Of a stretch of DNA of 64,000 nucleotides, positions 9,530 through 30,412 are shown piece after piece. Position 1 is the stretch's first letter, and each line of letters starts with the position of its first letter. Origin of the DNA: Oryzias latipes (Eukaryota; Chordata; Actinopteri; Beloniformes; Adrianichthyidae); the NCBI RefSeq assembly GCF_002234675.1, contig NC_019870.2, positions 5,712,485 through 5,776,484 on the forward strand, in the 5' to 3' direction. The notes under the pieces are model-generated. The model saw only the letters and a list, made by a program, of their open reading frames with translations, made no database searches and was not told the origin of the DNA. The translations under genes and the position numbers were made by a program.

Positions 9530-11305
9530 TCAAGCTGGGAGGTGCTTCCAGGTGCTGACGAAAGCCGTAGGAATGAGCGAGTATGGCACAGTAGTGATGC
9601 TGTTCCATGCATCGAGGGTGGGGTCATAGCAGTCAAGAGTTTTACATCGCTGTGTGCCAAAGTATCCGCCCACTACGTACAGTTTGTTTCCCGATGCCAC
9701 CGCCTGGCAACTCATTCGTTTGGCGGTCACATCACCCACTTTTGTCCACTGATAGTTCTCACTGCTGAACTTGTAGGCTGAGCATGCTGAAAATTCTGTA
9801 TCACCACCCATAACGAAGATCTGGTTTCCCAACACTGCGGCAGCCGTGTAACGCCACGGCTGTGGACAGGAGGCCGGAACAGTCCATCGGTTCTCCTGCG
9901 GATCATAACACTGGACTTTGGGCAGTTTGTCGTGAGTGACACTGGTTCCCCCAAAGGCAAACAGCTTGAGCTTTACACTGACGACTGCTGCATTACTCAC
10001 TCCTTCTCTTAAAGGAGCCACCATGGTCCACTTGTTTGCCACGGGGTCAAACTGCTCCACTTGCTTGAGGGACACAGATGGAGAAGCCGGCAAGCAACCA
10101 GTAGCTGCAGTGTGTCCACCAACGACATAGAGACAGTGTTTCAGCTCAGTAGAGCCATGTCCAAACCGGGCGATTAGCATGGGGGCAGCCTTTGACCATT
10201 CCTCATGGACAGTATCATAGACCCAGACATCTTTGGACACTCCGTTCTCTGATCCCCTTCCACCTGTAATGTAGACTTTACAACCAATGGCACATGCACT
10301 GAATTCTTTCCTAGGACTGGGAATGTCAGCTTTGGGAATGATCTCTTTGGCTTTCTGATCAACCAGGTACAACTTGTCACACATGAAGGTCTGCCCACCC
10401 AGAAGGAAGAGGGCATGGCTGGTTTTTCTTGGTCGAGCACATGGGCTGTTGACAACGCCGTCATTCTGCAGGATCTTAAGCTTACAGCGTATAGCCTCAT
10501 CTACCAGTTCCTTACTCTTTGCCTGAGCGTTGATCAGCTCCTCTGTTGACACATTCTCCATTAAAAATATGGCAGGAAGCAGAGCAAGGCGGACTGTTCT
10601 GAGGAGTTCTGGAAGATGGCAGTGCCTCCTCTCCAGATCGTAGTTGATCCAGTTGAGGGCAGCTTCATAAACCAGCCTCTCATCTTCTGTCTCTAGTTCC
10701 TCATGGGACAACAGCTGCACCACCATGTCTTTGGGCAGTTGGAGGAAATCCTCTGTCTTGCAAATAGCAGGGAAGTTGCTAAGACACATGCCCCAGGAGA
10801 GCTCTGACAGCTTGGTGCACTGGTGGGCGTCAGACAGCAGCAGCATGCCAAGGCAGTTGGATGGGTGAAGGTTTCTCTCAAGGAATTCGGCGCAGGCGTC
10901 GCGGATGTCTTGAAACTCCAGCATGTCTCCAGCCTCCAGTAGTGACTCAGCGTTCTCTTCATTGATGACCACGCGCGACGAGTACGCATAATCCAGCAGG
11001 AGTTCTAAAACCTCTGGATGGATGGAGTCCCGGAAGTCCACCTCACTGGCCTGGCTTTCTCTGAGCCCCCCACTGAACATGGCCTCAAAGTATCGACTGC
11101 AGGCAGCCAGCACGGCGCGATGGCAGGGGAAGGTGCGGCTGCCTGCGTGAAGCAGGACATCTGTGAAGAGCCTTTGCTGCCGCAGAGAGTTGAGGTGCAT
11201 GAGGACACTGTCCGCGTAGGAGGACTTGTGAAAAAGGTAGATATTCATGGAGCCGGTGCTGGCTCTGGATTTTCGGTTCTCGTGGACGCACACGGACATT
11301 TTCAT
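9530..11305 (-). CDS. enc1: Ectoderm-neural cortex protein 1 (BTB-BACK-Kelch)
   Basis: Kelch-family protein that acts as a substrate adaptor for CUL3 ubiquitin ligase and associates with actin in neural tissue. The reading frame is a single uninterrupted coding exon of 591 codons, as in mammals. In order it has a BTB domain (about 30-140, with the 'TFPCHRAVLAACSRYFEAMF' core), a BACK domain (about 150-255), then six Kelch repeats (about 300-585) with repeated Gly-Gly and paired Tyr/Trp. Near identity to human ENC1 (589 aa) runs end to end. Two in-frame ATGs lie at 11305 and 11299; the second gives the N-terminus MSVCVHENRK that matches human, so 11299 is the likelier start. A splice acceptor ends at 11312, only 6 bases before the first ATG, so a 5' noncoding exon lies upstream, probably in the CpG island near 15.6 kb. 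Confidence 0.98.
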   Translation of the reverse strand: MKMSVCVHENRKSRASTGSMNIYLFHKSSYADSVLMHLNSLRQQRLFTDVLLHAGSRTFPCHRAVLAACSRYFEAMFSGGLRESQASEVDFRDSIHPEVLELLLDYAYSSRVVINEENAESLLEAGDMLEFQDIRDACAEFLERNLHPSNCLGMLLLSDAHQCTKLSELSWGMCLSNFPAICKTEDFLQLPKDMVVQLLSHEELETEDERLVYEAALNWINYDLERRHCHLPELLRTVRLALLPAIFLMENVSTEELINAQAKSKELVDEAIRCKLKILQNDGVVNSPCARPRKTSHALFLLGGQTFMCDKLYLVDQKAKEIIPKADIPSPRKEFSACAIGCKVYITGGRGSENGVSKDVWVYDTVHEEWSKAAPMLIARFGHGSTELKHCLYVVGGHTAATGCLPASPSVSLKQVEQFDPVANKWTMVAPLREGVSNAAVVSVKLKLFAFGGTSVTHDKLPKVQCYDPQENRWTVPASCPQPWRYTAAAVLGNQIFVMGGDTEFSACSAYKFSSENYQWTKVGDVTAKRMSCQAVASGNKLYVVGGYFGTQRCKTLDCYDPTLDAWNSITTVPYSLIPTAFVSTWKHLPA

Positions 11306-12514
11306 TGAATCCTGAAACAGAGAGGAAAGAGGAAGAGAGAAAAGATCTCTTTAATGCATTTCATATTTGAAATCCACAAATATGAGGAACAAACCAGAGC
11401 ATTTCAAAACCTTTTAAATGTATACACAAGTTATGGCTTGTTTTAAAGCAAAAGACTGTGATGTTTGCATGTTTTTAAATAACAAAAGAAGGTTTATCCG
11501 CTTGTAAAGTAGGTCTAATTTGCCTAACAAATTGTGACTGGTGCACATCCAAGCAGTGTGGAGTGAATGCTAAAATACTGAATCACTCTGTCCATAAAAA
11601 GATGAGCTGCACGACTTAAAAGACTAGAAAAACCCCCTCAAGAGAAATAAGTGATCCACTGAAGAAAAATGACTAAACGGCACACATCTCAGGGTTATGT
11701 AGGTCAACTGTCTCCTTAAAAGTACTCTTCCACCTCCAGCTTTAAGAAGTGATAATCCTCATCTTTGATACCCCTCATCTACAAATAAAGTGTCCCTTTG
11801 TAGGGAACCCATAAGTCAAGAGGAAAGGGAAAATAAGGAAGAAATGGCAGGACTGTTAAGCCTCTCAAAAATGCGCACAATTTACTTCAATCCTCCCTTC
11901 AGGGGAAAAAAAAGACAGCTCGCTCTTCACTGTCCTCGGCCTGTCCTCACACAGAGCTAACTTTCATTCCACCCAGTTTCCTACCCTTGCCAAACGCCTG
12001 GCGCCTTCCATGGGTGCACAGACTTCAATGTTTCCCGCTAGCTCAGAACTCTGGGAGGGGGGTGGTTTTCTAACTGGGTGACATAATTGGATAGAAGATA
12101 TTGAAAATCAAATTCTGCTGGCAGTGGCCAGCGTGTTTGCTTCCTTACTGGAGACAAACAGCTGAAGCGCGTGGTCACCTTGAAACCTGTAAGTAACTAT
12201 GAATTCCAGAGATTCCACGCTTGGAAAGGCAAAAGCTTTTACAAAGATGCTGGAGGAAAATATGCCTGAAATGTTTTGAATTTTTGCATTTTTAGCAAGG
12301 CCTTATTTTTGTATTTGCAGAACGGAAAATTGTATAGCATGAATGTTGTTTTTTGTAAATTTGTTTTGGATAATAGCAACTCTTCTACCACCCACTAATG
12401 TAGTTAAAGTCCAAATCATCTTTTAATTTATTTTCAAATAGATGAAATGGTCTTTTAATTATAATTATGCTGTTTTTAGCCAAAATTTAAAAAAAAAAAA
12501 CTAAAAAAAACAGT

Positions 12515-20590: not shown

Positions 20591-23500
20591 ATGCGCGCGC
20601 TGTCTGTGTCCGCTCTGCTGCTCCTGGCTCTCAACTCCTGCCGGGGGACGCAGGACAACCTCCTGGACGAGGATGTCATCGAGCCCGTCGTCCAGGCTTC
20701 CAAATACGGCTCTCTGTGGCCTCTGCCGCAGAAAGTGCAGATCTCGGAGGTTCCGCTGAAGCTGAGCGGAGCCACTTTCGAATTCACCGATGCTAAGGGG
20801 TCGACCGCCGGTCCGAGCTGCAGCCTGCTGCAGAGCGCCTACAGGAGGTGAGACGCTGCGTTTGCTGCGGCTCGTTCGCTTTTTAACTTGCCTGGTTTGG
20901 TCAATAGAGGAGCCGGTGCAGTGGTGCGTTCAAGGACCGGTTTCCCTCTCTCTGCAGGTACTATGATTATATTTTTGGGGGCCCTAAAAAACAGAAGATG
21001 AGCAGAAACAGACGAGCTGGCCCCTTGGAACTGACTGAGCTGCAAGTGTCGATCACATCACCTGACTCCCAATGTGATGGTTATCCTTCTGTGACGTCAG
21101 ACGAGTCATGTGAGTCCCCCACTTCGTGGTATTATGTTTTAAAAATGTTTGTTTTTTTAGGACGTAGAGAATTCTGATTTAAACTGATCCTATTTAATTT
21201 TAAGTAAATGGACACAGATGTTGATTATATTTTTTTAATAAAAACAAATTTAGGTCATACTAACAAGCTTTTTTTTGCTTTTCCACTCTTCTTGCACTAT
21301 TACAAACATTAAGTTCCTTGTCAGGTAAATATTTAATTAATAATAATAGAAAAAAAAGAACTTTTATTCTGAAAACCATAACTTTTATGTTTAGGTTTTT
21401 CCCCTTTATCTCATCAAACCAGGAATTCAGTGGGTTTAAGTCACATCTACAATGTATTTTGTTGTTAATAAAAATGTACAATCTTCACCTTATTCAATTA
21501 AGATGGGAATCCCACAGGTACCTGTCCTGGAGCCCATGTTATTTTACCAGTTTGTTTACATCCAGTACTGTTCACGTTCACAACTAAAAAAAGTTTTATT
21601 GAACATAAACACATTTACAGAACATATAGATAAGTGCATCCACAACCAATGAGCATAAACATTTTCTACATGGAATAGTTAAAACAGAGGATATGTGAAT
21701 AAGAAGTAATAAGTAAACAAATGAACAGAACTTCTTCTGCGGCTGGCAGAAAACAGGAAGCATAAAGTAAAGGTCACTTTAGTTGATTAAATTCTGTCTA
21801 AAACTAAAAGCAAAACAATGGTAAATACTTTTGTAGAAGACTGTACTAAACTGTACTAAAAAAATTTTAAAACAAAATCTTAAATAAATTGTTTTTATTA
21901 GTTTTAGGCTAATCTGGACACGTTGAATACCTAAAACATTTAGCTTTCCTGTTCTGTTCTTTGCTGAGGTTTGACCTCAATGGAACCAGCTACTGCTGGG
22001 AATAAAGCACAGTAGTCAACATAGTCATTGATCTGAATATTTTCCGTTTTCATACATGAATTGTTTTGTTTTTGAATGGAAATGTTAAATCTGCTATTTT
22101 TACTGGAGTGCAGGGATTTTCTAACTACAAAGTGGAGCTTATGTGGACCTTAAACTGAAGGATTAGCGCTGACAAAGTGTTTAAAACCTCATTAAAACCT
22201 GAACCCAAACAGAGCTGTGATAAGCAGAAAATGAACGTGCTGTTTACCGCCATCTGTGTCCGCAGATGAGCTGTCTGTGGATGTGCCGGTCGCTGTCCTG
22301 AAAGCCCCAACCGTCTGGGGAGCTCTGCATGGTACGACTATTGAACACTTTATTTGAAATTGTTATTTTATCATCATATTTAATGGAAAATGATTTCAAT
22401 TTCTGGTATTTTATACGTTTTTTAATGTATCTTTGCATCCAGATGTGTTAAACGGTCAATATTTTCTTAGATATTTAAGGCCTATGATCACTTATGTTAA
22501 TTTATATTTATATATTTTTTGTAAATTCACTAATGGTTTATTCAGACTGGGAAAACCGTTTGTTCCAACTCAGTCCGCTTAATTTGGTCCGGATCGATTC
22601 GACTGTCCTGTTCCAGACTAAAGCTACCATGTGACTAAAGCTCTCTTCACTCATTGGTCAGGAAACCACGAGGGTGGGGCAAAGCAACTAGAGTCAGTAA
22701 TTATGGAAGTCCTGCGCTTTTAGTTCATTCAAACTTTATATTTCGCTCACAAATTTTGAACGCCTGACAATCGTTGTCCGCGGCTCATCTGTTGCTACAT
22801 TCCTACGGCTACGGTGGCCGTTGTGGTTCCGTTGTTCCGCTCCAGCACCGGATTGTATTCAGAGTGAGGTATCTCAGGGTGAACCAGAGCTCAGTCTGAT
22901 TGGAAACAAACCGAGACCACCTGGGTCCGAGAGCGGGTTCTGGTCCGCTCGGGTGTATTTAGACTGAATATTTGTTCTGGATTATTGGAGGAGAAGAACT
23001 CTGGTCCCATTTAAGCGGACACCACATGTGTCCGGTCTGAACACACTCTATGTCTTAACACGTAGGCATGTTGAAAACACTCAGGCTCTTTGAGTCTATT
23101 GAGTTTGCAGATCTCAAGTCAATATTGAGTCTTACAGATAAACTGCATTCCTTTTCATCTGATGGAGATTATAAAATCCGAGGGTCATTCAGGATTATTT
23201 TTCTGTTACGGTCTCTAAAGTTTTTACATTTCGTCTCCGTATCAAATGTAAAATAATCTGTTTTTGAATAATTTGCTTTTTAAGTTGCCATATTTTGATG
23301 CTTTACATTGTACTTCAGAAACTTCACTTTTTGAGTAAAGTGAGGATTTTTTTTCCTGGGAAATTAAAATTCCAGGAGCAGATTGGGACCTTAATTTATA
23401 TAAGTATTTGTTTATATGACAAAAAATGTACAGAAAAGTTTGAAAGGAACCAAAAGTTTTTATAAATTATTGGACTTTTGCATTTAGGGTGCTTCCACTT

Positions 23501-26500
23501 TTCTCTCTAAGCTTTTTTGACATCTACAAAATCCAGGACCTTTCAAAGCAACAGTTGTGTTATGAACTCTTTTCTAAGCTTAAAGACGCATTCCAATAAC
23601 AATGGCGTTTTGGGTCTTTTTAACATGTTCTCGTGACATTTTCTGATGTTAGAAGACATAGATTAAGAAAATTAAGCTTAAAACTGCATTTCTGAGTATT
23701 TCTTTAGTCAAATCGTGAATCAGGAGCAGACAAAAGAAATGCAGTCGTAAAAAGATCTTATTTGTGTCGCAGAAAATAAGCTCCAAGCAGAAACTCCCCG
23801 CTCTGTTGCTCTGTGCCAACAGTCCGGCCCACAACATGGAGGTGAATTTCAAGTTTTTTGAAGGACCACCGGGAAATAAAATAGATCAGAAGATGATCAG
23901 AGTGGGACTTTAATTGTTCAAAAACAAAAAAAGAGCTTTTTCTTTGTTTATCGTTGAGGTCAAATGTCCACAGCCACACTTAAAAGGGTTTGTAAGAGAA
24001 ATATTTAATAAATATATGACTATATATTTCTTTTTATATATTTCTTTTTTTTAACCTAAACACAAGAAGTGAATTATTAATAACTCAAATCTACTCGCAA
24101 AAAAATAGTAAGTAAAGTTAACTTTTAAGTTTTAGTGATCAAATCCTGTCTATATTAACTAAGGATGTTGGAAAATGAGAATGAGGAAGCATAAATAACA
24201 TTTAACTATAATTTTTTTGCTTTTAGATAACATTTAATTGAAATAAAAACGTTAAACATGTATGGAAATTTTTTTTTTTATACCTGCCTGTTCCGAATGT
24301 CTGTAAGTTATCAGAGTAGAATTAATTTATGTAAATTTTCCCCAAATTTCCCTTTCAGGACTGGAAACCTTCAGCCAGCTGGTGTATGAGGATGACTATG
24401 GAGCTGTAAGTGAAGAGCTGTTGCTGTTTGCCTCTGCTCTCACCAAAGGTCTTGCCGTTAAACTAGAGTTAAGGTTTAAAAAGTTTTCTTTTGTGTGCAA
24501 AACCTCTGAACTTTCCAGAAAACCATCAATTCCACGAAAGTGAGCGACTTCCCGAGGTTTGCTCACCGAGGCATCTTGCTGGACAGCTCGCGCCATTTTC
24601 TCCCCATTAAAGTCCTCTTGGCTAATCTGGTACGACCTTTTCCCAGTGTCATTGAATTCATTAAATTGAATCATTTGATGGAATTTCCTCGTTTATGTTA
24701 CGCTGTTTGTTCAAACAGGAAACGATGGCCATGAACAAGTTCAATGTTTTCCACTGGCACATCGTTGACGACCAGTCCTTCCCGTATCTGAGCCGGACGT
24801 TCCCACAGCTGAGTCAGCAGGTCAGTCAGTCGGCGGCAGCTCTGTTTTGCCATCTTGTTGGGTACGCGGCGTTAACGCCTCGCCATGTTCTTAGGGAGCT
24901 TACCACCCCTACAGCCACGTGTACACGCCTTCTGACGTGAAAATGGTGATCGAGTTTGCTCGCCTGAGGGGCATCCGGGTCATCCCGGAGTTCGACACCC
25001 CAGGACACACGCAGTCCTGGGGGAAAGGTGAGCCCCTGCCGCATTTAGCCTCAGCGTTTGACTTATTATGATTGTTTTCATTGATGTCTGCCTCCATGTC
25101 TTCCCTCTCAGGCCAGATGGATTTGCTCACCCCGTGTTTCTCCGGTGCCACGCCGTCCGGCTCTTTCGGACCGGTGAACCCCATCCTGAACACCACATAC
25201 GACTTCATGAGCCGCTTCTTCAAGGAAGTGAGCGACGTGTTTCCTGACGGCTACGTTCACCTGGGAGGGGACGAGGTGGACTTCACGTGCTGGTGAGACT
25301 GCCGCACAGACCTCCTGATTTCAGACATGGCAGGCCTTAGCTGCTGCTCTCATCCTGCAGGAAGTCCAACCCGGACATTAAGAAGTTCATGGATCGGCAA
25401 GGCTTCGGGCAGGACTACAGCAAACTGGAGTCCTTCTACATCCAAAAGTCTGCTTGCTTTTTTCTGAGCTCAGATAGTTTTCCACACTAGAACAACTACA
25501 ACAATTAGCTTTTCTTTTGCTTTTCTAGACTTTTGGATATCGTCACCACAACTAAGAAGGGTTACATCATCTGGCAGGAGGTCTTTGACAATGGTGTTAA
25601 GGTAGGATTCTATATTTTAACAATTCAATTGATAACATAATTTGTGGTTACAATTTTTAGTCTATTGATTTATTTTGAGTAATCTGATTGGCCTAAAATG
25701 GATCCAGGTCATCTTTAGCCAAAACCTCAACCAGTGTGACTCAGAGATAAACACCTGGTTCTGAACAGAGCAGGTGAAGTTTTCCAGATTCCTTGGTTTT
25801 CTCGCAAGATAATCAAGTGTAAATTAAATATGTGTCCGAACAAACAAGTAAACAAGAATGAATGGCATAGTTTACAGATTATGTTTGACTAGATATTTCA
25901 CTGAGGATGAAGATCAACTTTTAAAAGTTAAGGGAAACTGGAGGCTAAAAATAAAACAAACCAGTTTAATGTCAGAATATTTTCACGGACCCGCCTGTAT
26001 GAGGCAGAAGTGGGCGTCAGATAAAAAAAAAAAACAACAACATTAAAATATGGTATAGATTTTCTCTTAACCCATTACTGTACAAGTGGAAGCTGAAACA
26101 AAAACTTCAGCCTCGTCTGACTTTTAAGGTTCGATAGATAAGTATAAAAAAAACGGTCACTAAAACTTGTCTTTCCTAAGTATTGTAATAATAAATGTCA
26201 GTCCATGAGCAACTTTATTAGCAGCATTGGCTCGTTGCAGCTGAAGCCAGACACAGTAGTGCATGTGTGGATGGGCAGCGGGAGCGATGCGGAGATGAAC
26301 AAGGTGACGACAGCAGGATACACCACCATCCTCTCCGCCCCCTGGTACCTAGATTATATTAGCTACGCTCAGGACTGGCAGAAGTACTACAAAGTCGAGC
26401 CGCTCAACTTCAACGGTCAGTTCTGTTTGAGTGGATGGGGCTCTTGTTCAGCAGGCTTACACAGATACTGCACAGCTGTGGGATTCAAATGTCACCAGCT

Positions 26501-29500
26501 GCTAAAAAGGAACAGAAGTTGGAAGCACAAAGGTTGGGAGGTTTTCTGTCCGTGTTCCTCCGTCTGAAAGCTTCATCTGACTCCTCCCATGTATGTGTGC
26601 TGTTTAGCTGAAGCCAGACACACTTATCCACGTTTGGAAGGGAAACCAGGAACAATACCAGAACGAGATGGCAAAAATTACCTCGGCAGGGTACCAGACC
26701 CTGCTGTCCTCTCCCTGGTACCTGAACCGTATCTCCTACGGCCAGGACTGGCAGAGCACTTACAAGGCCGACCCACAGGATTTTAAGGGTTTGTGTATGT
26801 TTTTTGTGTCAGTTTTATTCATTATAAGATGGGCGGGGCAGTACCATTGACTGTATATGACATCTGGACTGAGTGACCCCCTCCAAACAGGAAGTACCTA
26901 CTGGTTCCAAGAAACCAAATTCCTATAGACTTCTATTGAGATGTATAGTAAAAAGGCATTTGTCAGAATAACCATTCTTGTTGATCCTAAAAAACTTTCA
27001 TGAAATATTTTGTGTAGTTCATGTTATTCCAGTCATAAACTGACCAATCAGAGGCCTCAACAAAAGTAAGGGGTCTCATGTTGAGTGTTGCAGGTTATTT
27101 CGAAATGTTTTACAAATTTTCCCAACCCTGCTAATTAAAGTGGTAGGGATATGGACTTCCAACAAGCTCACTCCTGATTGGTGAGATTGGTTTCCACAGA
27201 AACGATTTCTCAGACTGCCTCAGACCAATCGCTGCTTAATGACGTTGTCTGGCTCCAACATGGCTTGGTTGGAGCATTTTCTATGAGCGACGTCACACTC
27301 ACTCAGTCCAGTTCTGAGATACAGTCAATGGGTGCGACCCTTAATCCATCCAAAGGCCAACAGTTTTGTTTAGAAATGCAAAGGACCAAATTAAGTAGCT
27401 GATTTTTCTTTTGTAAATAGTTCAATTGAAAGAAATCCACACTTTCTTTGCATAGCGCCTTGAAATTACTTTAAATTTGAAGCTTCGAAAACAAACTGAA
27501 TTAAATGCAATGACTGTATACATACTGTACTGGACTGAGTGAGTCTGACATCACCCATAGAAAATGCTAAGCTTCCAGCTCCAACCAAATGAAGTCGATG
27601 AAGTCACCGCCATGTTGGAGCCAGACGTCATCAGTAAGCAGTTTTTAGCCTGAGTCAGTCAATGTTTCTATGGCAACTACTCTCACCAGTCAGGAGGGAG
27701 CTTGTTGGACGTCCACATCCCTTTCACCTTTAATTTGAGAATCTGTCAGTGAAATGTTTTGATTGTTTGACGAGAGACCACATGCTTTTATTGAGGCATC
27801 TGATTGGTCAGTTTATAACTTGAATAAAAAGTAGCAGTGCAAGAATGGTTGTTCTGACAAATAGAATGACGGATAATGGCTGTTTATTTCTGTATAAAAG
27901 TTTCTGGGATTTTGGCTTCACGGGGCCAGCGGGTACTTCCTGTTTGAAACTCGATGGAGGGGTCATTCTGTTCAGTTTTCATATAAAGTCAATGATTTCA
28001 TGTTAAATGTTTTAAAAAGTACTCAAATCATTCATTTTTCGACTATTTCTTGCAAAAGAAAAAAAACAAAACCATGATTCCTCAAATTTCTTTTTAGGAC
28101 AGCTGTGAGAAATCATCCCAGCTGTCAGTTCTGTTTCTAAAATATGGAAAAAAAAATCACACACAAAAAAAATCCCAAAATGAATAATGAGAAGTCGTTT
28201 ATTCTTCCGTCTTAGAAAGCAGCAGACTGACCTAGATCAGAAAGCTGAGTCAGTTTCAGTAAAACTTTATGGGCAAAGGCCAAAGAAGATAAGAAAATCT
28301 GTAATCTGTAACCCTTGTGCTATCTTAGATGACCCCACCCTTACTTTGACGTGTTATTCCTACCATGATAAAGGTGGATAGATTTCATGTAATCCATGGA
28401 CACCAGTGAAGATCACAAATCATTGAAAAAAAACGGTTCAGAGCTCTGTCTAGTGGGTCTAGATGACCCAACTCCTAACGTTAAAGTGCCTAGGATAGCA
28501 CAAGGGTTATGGTGCAGTCTTCCTGGAATATTGACGCAAAAATCAATGCTGGAATTTCTAGGAACTACCTGCATGTTTTTGTTTTTTTTACCAGTTGCAC
28601 GAAAAATCTTCAGAATTTGGATCCGTTTCTACATCAGCACTTGGTCCACATTATTGACCAATTATTCTCATTTAAATCCTTAATTTGCCCCCCCCCCCGT
28701 GTAAGTCTATGTAAGCCTGTTGAATAAAGAGGAAGAACAATGAATGCGGCCATTTTATCACATAATCTTTGAATTGATCTAAATAACATTATATCTCATA
28801 ACGTTTGACTTTTTCCACAAGGAACTGAAGAACAAAAGAAGCTTGTGATTGGTGGAGAGGCCTGCCTGTGGGGGGAGTATGTGGACGCGACCAACCTGAC
28901 GCCCCGACTCTGGTAAGGCTTCTGGATGGATGTACGTAACGGAGGTCACGGTCACATGATCAACCACTGACCTGCCTGCGTCTTGTCGGCGCGCGAAGGC
29001 CTCGAGCCAGCGCTGTGGCAGAGCGACTGTGGAGCGCCAAAGACGTCACGGACATCAACGACGCGTACAACAGACTGTCGGCGCACCGTTGCCGCATGGT
29101 GGAGTGAGTATCATGGAGTGACTTTAGTTTCAGTGAAATGAAAAAAACAAATGAACCCTTTAACGCCATATGTGTCACCAGCAGCACCTGAACAGCGTAC
29201 GCTCTGACATACCATAAATCTGTGAATCAGCTGATTTATGTGGACTACATAAACTCTCAACTCTTTAGGCTTTTTCTTTCACAGCAATATTCTGACATAT
29301 AAAAGACTTGCTGTCGTAAAATTCCGGCCAGACACAAACAACAGTTATTGTTTTCTCCTTTATGATCAGGTTTCAAAAGGTTGGCACTTTTTGAATATAA
29401 GGGACGCCATCCGTAATACGTCACTACAAAATCCGAGTCCCTTATCGGTCAAAGTTCAATTAATTTAACTTTCAACACGCCTTCAGTGGTTTTGTACGCA

Positions 29501-30412
29501 GAGCCCAAAAACGGTTGTAGAAACTCGCGTCGCTATGCGTGAACACGAGAGTTCTGAACGCAGAGGACATAGACTTTTCATTGGACAGAAGCGCTCGGAC
29601 GCGCATCGTCAAGGGCGATGCGCGTGTAGCTTCAGTTTCGCTAGACAAAAGAATATCAACATTGGAGCTAAAGCTCAGCTGTTAAAGGGGTTAACAGGCA
29701 GAACGATCAGACCAAAAAACTGCATAATGAGGAATAAATGAACAATTTCATAAATTGCAGCTTCTTTAGAGCCAATTGTAAATAAAGCCATGTGATTGCA
29801 GTGAGATCAGTGGAGTAGTCGACTTTATTAGAGTACTTCTAGATGTTTTAAGGCTGGTCCCTAGCTATATTGTGGTTCACCGTTTATGTGTTTTACTGAT
29901 TTTGTTTAGGTTTATTTATTTATTTATTTTTACACTGCAGTGTGTTCTGTTTGGCTGATGATCTTTTTCAATTTCCTCTAATCTCCTGTACAGAGTGTGT
30001 TCTTTTCTTTTTAATTCTCAAAATCTAAACCGTAGTAAGTTTGATAGAATTTCAAAGAATGAAAACAAAGATCTGCTTGTAGATTTGGAAAACTGAAGGC
30101 ATTCTGTACAGGAGGCAGCACGGAGCTTGATTGACATGGTCAACAGCCAATCAGGACACAGAACATAATGCACTGTTTAAAGAAAAACATGCAAAATTGC
30201 ACACAAAAAAAAAATAATAATAATAATAATCGGCGAGACTGCGAAAGGTAGTTATAGCGCCAGACCTCTGTATAATAAACCTAAAAAAATTAATTGGTCT
30301 TTTTGTTTTAAATCTCTAAAACGACAATAACATGTTTCTCTTTGGAAGGCGAGGGATCCCAGCTGAGCCGCTGTTTTCCAGCTTCTGTCGGCACGAGTAC
30401 AAAGGCATATGA
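20591..30412 (+). CDS. hexb: Beta-hexosaminidase subunit beta (lysosomal, GH20)
   Basis: Removes terminal beta-linked GlcNAc/GalNAc in lysosomes, including from GM2 ganglioside as part of dimeric Hex A. Exons: 20591-20847, 20958-21109, 22266-22331, 24359-24405, 24519-24629, 24719-24820, 24895-25027, 25112-25292, 25361-25447, 25529-25601, then either 26241-26415 (11a) or 26608-26788 (11b), then 28822-28912, 28999-29103, 30349-30412. Length is 547 aa with 11a or 549 with 11b (human 556). Visible: signal peptide (residues 1-18), substrate-binding Arg191 (HRGILLD), [11 protein letters not shown], catalytic Asp343-Glu344 in HLGGDEVDF, glycosylation sequon at Asn316, and the C-terminal RHRC-like block (HRCRMVERG). 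The last exons match HEXB rather than HEXA. Splice sites are all GT/AG; the acceptor at 28998 has a poor pyrimidine tract. The oddity is the tandem duplicated exon, entered separately. The start was chosen because it begins a signal peptide; an upstream in-frame ATG at 20498 would hide it. Confidence 0.95.
22540..23050. repeat. Interspersed DNA-transposon remnant in hexb intron 3
   Basis: A GC-richer block begins 'ttcagactgggaaaaccgtt' and ends 'tccggtctgaacacactct', so short inverted ends (cagact / gtctga) may exist. Its composition differs from the AT-rich intron around it. No transposase frame is present. It resembles hAT-like remnants of fish, but the class is a guess. Confidence 0.4.
23590..23960 (-). 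repeat. Interspersed repeat family R2, copy 3 (inverted)
   Basis: Reverse complement of the right part of the copies at 12515-12985 and 17815-18245 (for example 'ctgatgttagaagacat', 'aagcttaaaactgcatttct', 'aatcaggagcagac'). Lies in hexb intron 3. Confidence 0.6.
25975..26240 (+). repeat. Interspersed repeat, copy 2, abutting hexb exon 11a
   Basis: Matches 1-356 in the same orientation. Its right end ('attagcagcat..tcgttgca') runs into the splice acceptor of exon 11a, whose AG is at 26239-26240. The acceptor of this exon therefore appears to lie in repeat-derived sequence. Confidence 0.6.
26241..26415 (+). CDS. hexb: hexb alternative exon 11a (beta-type)
   Basis: 175 bp exon, phase 0 at the start and phase 1 at the end, acceptor 'ctcgttgcag', donor 'g|gtcagt'. 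It encodes residues 404-461 plus the first base of Gly462. It holds active-site Trp413 (human HEXB Trp424) and Tyr439 (human Tyr450), followed by Asp441-Tyr442 where human HEXB has Asp452-Leu453. The loop after the Trp is short, as in HEXB. The first 15 bases (CTGAAGCCAGACACA) are identical to exon 11b. Including it together with 11b would shift the frame. Confidence 0.9.
26608..26788 (+). CDS. hexb: hexb alternative exon 11b (alpha-type), tandem duplicate of 11a
   Basis: 181 bp exon, 192 bp downstream of 11a, with the same phases (0 at start, 1 at end), acceptor 'gctgtttag' and donor 'g|gtttgt'. About 35 of 59 aligned residues match 11a. It keeps the active-site Trp413 and Tyr441, but has Asn443-Arg444, identical to HEXA Asn423-Arg424, and a loop two residues longer than 11a, again closer to HEXA. 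The frame is open throughout, splice sites are intact and the substitutions respect the fold, so it is under coding constraint rather than a decayed copy. Spliced after 11a, it would read into a TAA at 26784-26786. Confidence 0.85.
26845..27340 (-). repeat. Repeat family R1, copy in hexb intron, inverted relative to 27510-27990
   Basis: Reads 'tgaccaatcagaggcctcaa', 'aacaagctcactcctgattg' and 'ctcactcagtccag', all reverse complements of blocks in the next copy. It lies in the intron just downstream of exon 11b. Confidence 0.7.
27510..27990 (+). repeat. Repeat family R1, copy in hexb intron, forward
   Basis: Forward copy with 'ggactgagtgagtctgacat', 'catagaaaatgct', 'tctatggcaactactctcac' and 'catctgattggtc'. 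With the inverted copy 170 bp upstream it forms a hairpin-capable pair with arms of nearly 500 bases. Confidence 0.7.
28311..28507 (+). mobile_element. MITE, ACCCTTGTGCTATC family, copy 2
   Basis: Complete 197 bp copy with near-perfect terminal inverted repeats, flanked by TA on both sides (28309-28310 and 28508-28509). Lies in the hexb intron after exon 11b. Confidence 0.85.
29395..29700 (-). repeat. Interspersed repeat in last hexb intron
   Basis: Partial reverse-complement match to 385-625 (block 'ccgagtcccttatcggtcaa'). The 68-codon plus-strand frame at 29535-29741 inside it is not recognised as a protein. Confidence 0.4.

What the first reader, a model, noticed from the sequence alone, without database searches (positions are those of the whole stretch)
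26241..26788. The exon choice swaps beta-type and alpha-type substrate-pocket residues
After the conserved active-site Tyr-Leu, exon 11a has Asp-Tyr (human HEXB has Asp452-Leu453), whereas 11b has Asn-Arg, identical to HEXA Asn423-Arg424. In human Hex A this Asn/Arg pair is what lets the alpha subunit bind sialic-acid-bearing GM2 and sulfated substrates. Exon 11b also has the longer HEXA-like loop after the active-site Trp. One gene could thus supply both specificities, including GM2-active homodimers. The residues are seen directly; the functional switch is inference from known human enzymology.
Basis: partly seen in the sequence, partly recalled or inferred. Interest (0 to 1): 0.93.

Follow-up and report, generated by a model that had tools for sequence, protein, structure and literature searches.

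The report
Fish hexosaminidase with swappable active-site exon
A fish gene for the lysosomal enzyme hexosaminidase B carries two side-by-side versions of one exon, one with the pocket residues of human HEXB and one with those of HEXA (the Tay-Sachs gene), so splicing likely lets one gene make both a neutral-substrate enzyme and one predicted to digest acidic substrates such as sulfated sugars and possibly GM2 ganglioside.

Summary
Confirmed and extended. The window holds a complete 14-exon hexb gene (20591-30412, +) plus a spare exon 11. Exon 11a (26241-26415) reads WYL-Asp-Tyr; 11b (26608-26788) reads WYL-Asn-Arg, as human HEXA. Either keeps the frame (547 or 549 aa); both or neither give an early stop. 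The pair is conserved: with the two residues masked, 113 of 120 11a-like exon copies have Asp and 136 of 138 11b-like copies Asn (NR in 126). 11b occurs in fish from sturgeon to ricefish and in 12 frog proteins. Human HEXB given the same two residues gains activity on the sulfated substrate MUGS; whether such homodimers degrade GM2 is disputed (PMC3587417 no; PMC13198282 yes). New here: 11b groups with the HEXA exon, not with its neighbour 11a (96/86; 97/95 without the pocket and loop columns), and two sturgeon HEXA proteins also hold an 11a-like and an 11b-like copy. So the splice choice may predate the HEXA/HEXB gene duplication, although AU tests do not reject the alternative (p 0.109). The longer loop is not a conserved mark of 11b. 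No enzyme activity was tested, and none of my nine literature searches turned up a description of the exon pair.

The parts
20591..30412 (+). hexb gene, start codon to stop codon; 14 coding exons plus one alternative exon 11
   Evidence: splice sites and open frame; 94% identical over 549 aa to Oryzias melastigma P0017; HEXB clade in a tree without exon 11
20591..25601 (+). exons 1-10: 20591-20847, 20958-21109, 22266-22331, 24359-24405, 24519-24629, 24719-24820, 24895-25027, 25112-25292, 25361-25447, 25529-25601
25112..25292 (+). exon 8, codes for the loop [11 protein letters not shown] that aligns with the GM2-activator loop GSEPSG of human HEXA
26241..26415 (+). exon 11a, beta-type pocket: WYL-Asp-Tyr
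26416..26607 (+). 192-nt intron between the two alternative exons; branch-point-like CTGAC 31 nt before 11b
26608..26788 (+). exon 11b, alpha-type pocket: WYL-Asn-Arg
28822..28912 (+). exon 12, joined in frame by 11a or 11b
28999..29103 (+). exon 13
30349..30412 (+). exon 14 with stop codon TGA 30410-30412

Best explanation
This hexb gene carries two alternative copies of exon 11 whose pocket residues are beta-type (Asp-Tyr) in 11a and alpha-type (Asn-Arg) in 11b, so that splicing likely switches the enzyme between neutral substrates and acidic ones such as 6-sulfated amino sugars and possibly GM2. Shown by sequence: the gene model, the frame logic that leaves only single-exon messages with a full open frame, the residues, and their conservation in fish and frogs. 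Inferred from human enzymology: the Arg of 11b pairs with sulfate or sialic acid, and the Asp of 11a repels it. Inferred and disputed in the human parallel: that isoform-b homodimers, or mixed dimers with isoform a or with Hexa, also work with the GM2 activator. Inferred: transcripts with both or neither exon are removed by nonsense-mediated decay, so exclusion need not be strict at the splicing step.
For: Residue map to human HEXA and HEXB. Masked classification of 258 exon copies. 11b found in 120 listed of 564 hits, with LNR 113 times, VNR 1, LNY 3, LNH 3, and in 12 frog proteins, all NR. Frame logic: both exons give a stop inside 11b 200 nt before the last junction, neither gives one 171 nt before it. 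Full-length 11b proteins on contigs of 1,984 and 2,110 bases (P0024, P0069) and an 11a protein on 1,868 bases (P0167), too short for the introns. Best PDB sequence hit of isoform b is 5bro, engineered human modB with Asn-Arg (765.8 bits; wild-type HEXB 3lmy 754.6, title). MUGS activity of human hybrid homodimers.
Against: No activity, protein or junction-read data for the fish isoforms. Arg of 11b is Tyr or His in six of the listed fish proteins. Both sturgeon HEXA copies have Asn without Arg. The activator loop lacks the Glu of GSEP, and at 22 published interface positions the window protein is beta-type at 8, alpha-type at 2, neither at 12. H1 and H2 human hybrid homodimers failed on activator-dependent GM2. 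The AlphaFold model of the close relative P0017 (pLDDT 87) matches wild-type HEXB and modB equally well and does not tell the pockets apart.
Confidence: 0.72

Rival explanations
1. 11b serves sulfated sugar chains (6-sulfated GlcNAc or GalNAc) but not GM2: it would be a sulfo-hexosaminidase switch without activator-dependent ganglioside hydrolysis.
For: Human hybrid homodimers with the same two residues cleave MUGS but not GM2 with human activator. The Glu of the GSEP loop is missing in the window.
Against: modHexB homodimers lowered GM2 in mice (PMC13198282). Gly-x-x-Pro-Ser-Gly of the loop is kept in the window and in many fish HEXB proteins.
Confidence: 0.3
2. 11b and HEXA exon 11 became alike by convergence or gene conversion after a duplication inside hexb, so the pair is younger than the gene split.
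For: AU tests do not reject HEXB 11a plus 11b as one clade (p 0.109; p 0.121 without pocket and loop columns) nor HEXA with both sturgeon copies as one clade (p 0.144). The exon has only 59 columns.
Against: 11b, HEXA exon 11 and sturgeon HEXA copy 2 form one side of a branch, 96/86, and 97/95 with pocket and loop columns removed. HEXA of two sturgeons also holds two copies.
Confidence: 0.35
3. 11b is a conserved-looking but functionally idle exon, spliced rarely, with no change of substrate.
For: I saw no junction-read or peptide counts. NCBI isoform names are mostly automatic.
Against: Single-exon fish proteins covered in full are 70-95% identical to 11b plus flanks; frogs keep it; intron-free contigs carry it; hexb is listed as differentially spliced in a reef fish in a heatwave, event type not stated in the text seen (PMC8933327).
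Confidence: 0.06

Closest known systems
modB / mod2B (modHEXB), engineered human HEXB (PDB 5bro; PMC13198282; hybrid H1 of PMC3587417)
   Same: HEXB backbone with Asn-Arg at 452-453; best PDB sequence hit of isoform b
   Different: made by design; carries GSEP where the window has GATP; the fish gene keeps both pocket types through splicing; GM2 activity of such homodimers is disputed
HexM / HexD3 (PMC11698352)
   Same: alpha-type pocket combined with beta-type dimer interface as a homodimer
   Different: built on HEXA; the window is beta-type at only 8 of the 22 interface positions
Human HEXA/HEXB pair (Hex A and Hex B)
   Same: the same two pocket types
   Different: two genes and subunit choice instead of one gene and exon choice
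Mutually exclusive tandem duplicated exons of vertebrates (survey PMC9741552, passages)
   Same: homologous neighbouring exons, one used at a time; in some genes ligand-binding residues differ
   Different: HEXA and HEXB have no occurrence in the main text of that survey of human events

Membership tests
GH20 lysosomal hexosaminidase, HEXB orthologue | GH20 catalytic domain and catalytic residues | tested here: met
   PF00728 at 8e-92 in the 94% identical P0017; catalytic Asp-Glu and stacking residues unchanged in both isoforms (list of residues recalled)
GH20 lysosomal hexosaminidase, HEXB orthologue | groups with HEXB rather than HEXA outside exon 11 | tested here: met
   17 HEXB rows one side of a branch, SH-aLRT 96; 7 HEXA rows 99 (quick tree)
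Mutually exclusive tandem duplicated exons | neighbouring homologous exons of equal phase, each giving a full frame alone | tested here: met
Mutually exclusive tandem duplicated exons | messages contain one exon or the other, not both | tested here: inconclusive
   both forms seen in protein sets and on intron-free contigs; 15 retrieved proteins hold both copies, probably gene-prediction artefacts; no read counts
Alpha-type (Hex A) active site | Asn-Arg at 423-424 | tested here: met
   isoform b
Alpha-type (Hex A) active site | hydrolysis of sulfated substrate and of GM2 with activator | not testable with these tools
   needs purified protein
Alpha-type (Hex A) active site | GSEP activator loop | tested here: not met
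   GATP in the window; Gly, Pro, Ser, Gly kept, Ser and Glu not

The most novel reading that the evidence does not exclude
The alpha/beta division of labour behind Tay-Sachs and Sandhoff disease began as a splice choice inside one ancestral vertebrate gene. Gene duplication later left one exon type to each daughter gene in mammals, while fish and frogs still run the ancestral switch in hexb and make from a single gene the acidic-substrate, GM2-degrading enzyme that bioengineers re-invented as modB and HexM.
Probability: 0.36. Interest if true: 0.92.

Novelty: new variant of a known kind. Interest (0 to 1): 0.82.

Why it matters
It would be a clear, testable case in which alternative splicing and gene duplication solve the same biochemical problem, at a disease-relevant active site. 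[quoted passage not shown] It would also offer many natural sequence solutions to the design goal of modB and HexM, a stable one-gene enzyme for GM2.

Tried and rejected
A distant branch point that would block joining of 11a to 11b (a mechanism known for OGDH, PMC7969005, seen only in the listing): a branch-point-like CTGAC lies 31 nt before 11b, so this is not the likely cause; frame shift and decay suffice. The longer loop as the mark of 11b: rejected, frog 11b is as short as 11a. Structure ranking as evidence for an alpha-type pocket: it does not discriminate. An early trend in the tree that could have come from the pocket residues themselves: tested by dropping them and the loop; the grouping stayed. 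Left open: whether teleost hexa carries Asn-Arg, since no teleost HEXA was among the proteins listed by the three protein searches; whether HEXB of reptiles, birds or mammals hides an 11b exon, since only proteins were seen and those listed are 11a-type. Literature: searches gave no title or passage that I saw describing this exon pair; [quoted passage not shown]

Full report
What is there. On the + strand, 20591-30412 holds a complete gene of 14 coding exons plus one spare exon, with AG/GT at the internal exon borders. Isoform b is 94% identical over 549 aa to P0017 of Oryzias melastigma, and P0017 matches the GH20 catalytic domain at 8e-92. In a quick tree without exon 11 the window row lies inside a group of 17 HEXB rows (SH-aLRT 96), apart from 7 HEXA rows (99) and 12 outgroup rows (99).

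The two exons. 11a and 11b are 67% identical in DNA and share phase 0 to 1. Isoform a has 547 residues, isoform b 549. With both exons the frame breaks and a stop falls inside 11b, 200 nt before the last junction; with neither, a stop falls 171 nt before it. Both would be targets of nonsense-mediated decay (inference). Of 14 acceptors, that of 11a has the shortest AG-free stretch (16 nt) and the lowest pyrimidine share (53%), so it looks weak and may be regulated (inference).

The pocket. 11a gives Asp-Tyr and 11b Asn-Arg at the HEXA N423-R424 / HEXB D452-L453 positions; the other active-site residues that I listed from recall are the same in both. PMC3587417 (passages) states that these two aligned differences are the primary cause of alpha-type activity on MUGS and GM2: the Arg can pair with sulfate or sialic acid and the Asp repels them. 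The constant exons carry GATPSG where human HEXA has GSEPSG and human HEXB RQNKLD. At 22 positions by which HexM turns an alpha subunit into one with a beta interface (Table 1 of PMC11698352 as seen), the window protein is beta-type at 8 (184, 209, 231, 429, 436, 466, 495, 508), alpha-type at 2 (229, 521) and neither at 12.

Conservation. A search with the 11b region gave 564 proteins, the best 120 listed. In these 120, the three letters after Trp-Tyr are LNR 113 times, VNR 1, LNY 3, LNH 3, and, mostly in proteins that hold both exons, LDY 13, LDL 2, LDW 1. They include ricefish, zebrafish, salmonids, eels, arapaima and sturgeon. A search with the frog 11b region gave 34 proteins; 12 are frog HEXB proteins with 11b (P0047, P0121-P0131; Ascaphus among them), all Asn-Arg. 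Over all three searches, 258 exon copies in 243 of 246 proteins were sorted with the two residues masked. 11a-like: DY 105, DW 4, DL 2, DI 2, NR 2, NL 2, NY 1, NM 1, EE 1. 11b-like: NR 126, NY 4, NH 3, NV 2, DY 2, NI 1. The 11b-like class also holds the HEXA exons and a few outgroup rows. In 24 HEXB 11a against 23 HEXB 11b exons the two pocket columns are among five columns with no shared letter.

Expression. For at least six species the two isoforms sit on contigs of the same length in the listings, so probably in one gene (Chaetodon trifascialis P0021/P0235, Labrus bergylta P0057/P0237, Tautogolabrus adspersus P0045/P0182, Triplophysa dalaica P0120/P0180, Poecilia formosa P0095/P0221, Ophioblennius macclurei P0082/P0245). 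Contigs of 1,984 and 2,110 bases (11b: P0024, P0069) and 1,868 bases (11a: P0167) encode 547-564 aa and cannot hold introns like those of this 9.8-kb gene, so they are probably transcripts. PMC8933327 (passages) lists hexb as differentially spliced in Acanthochromis polyacanthus in a heatwave, without the type of event in the text seen; P0166, from that species, is an 11a protein named isoform X2.

Origin. In the exon-11 tree (71 rows, 59 columns) HEXB 11b (23), tetrapod HEXA exon 11 (6) and sturgeon HEXA copy 2 (2) are one side of a branch at 96/86. HEXB 11a (24), sturgeon HEXA copy 1 (2) and the outgroup (14) are the other. With pocket and loop columns dropped the same split stands at 97/95. 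Outside exon 11 the proteins sort by gene instead. This discordance, and the two copies in HEXA of Acipenser ruthenus and A. sinensis (P0153, P0155), argue that the exon was duplicated before the gene. Against: AU tests do not reject HEXB 11a plus 11b as one clade (p 0.109; p 0.121 with columns dropped) nor HEXA plus both sturgeon copies as one clade (p 0.144). HEXB 11a is not itself one clade in the tree, both sturgeon copies have Asn without Arg, and they are gene predictions. Four columns outside the pocket give copy 1 the 11a state and copy 2 the 11b state, 4 of 4 each, but I picked them after seeing the data. Of 14 outgroup rows 9 have Asp at the first pocket position, so 11a is likely the older form. 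PMC2492878 (passages) places the HEXA/HEXB gene duplication in vertebrates after the split from tunicates.

Comparison. PMC13198282 (passages) describes human HEXB changed at 452-453 (DL to NR) and 312-318 (RQNKLDS to GSEPSGT); it forms homodimers and lowered GM2 in Sandhoff mice. 5bro, modified HexB (modB), is the best PDB sequence hit of isoform b (765.8 bits; wild-type 3lmy 754.6). Against an easy reading, PMC3587417 (abstract and passages) found that the hybrid homodimers H1 and H2 cleave MUGS but do not hydrolyse GM2 with human activator, while alpha-hybrid heterodimers do. So the firm prediction for 11b is activity on sulfated substrates; GM2 is possible, perhaps in mixed dimers. In PMC6772114 (passages) zebrafish hexb knockouts lose over 99% of activity on MU-GlcNAc, a neutral substrate; I saw no sulfated substrate there, so the fish question is open.

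Verdict.

Noticed in passing
9530-11350 (-): Single long open frame of 605 aa with BTB, BACK and Kelch domains; ENC1-like by recalled synteny with HEXB, not tested further.
   Followed up: partly
26407-26415 and 28822: The join of 11a to exon 12 makes an N-glycosylation sequon (Asn-Gly-Thr, residue 461) that the 11b join lacks, so the exon choice may also switch a glycan.
   Followed up: no
P0153, P0155 (sturgeon HEXA): Two tandem exon-11 copies in the annotated HEXA protein, both with Asn but neither with Arg (LNL, LNV), while sturgeon HEXB P0101 has Asn-Arg: in sturgeons the anionic pocket may reside in hexb only.
   Followed up: partly
P0156, P0157, P0158 (Clavelina lepadiformis): Three related tunicate proteins, 70-76% identical, read Asp-Tyr, Asn-Met and Asn-Arg at the two positions, as if gene copies made a similar swap on their own.
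   Followed up: partly
P0059, P0078, P0085, P0082, P0089, P0095: In these six fish proteins 11b keeps Asn but has Tyr or His for Arg, which may mark loss or change of the anionic pocket.
   Followed up: no
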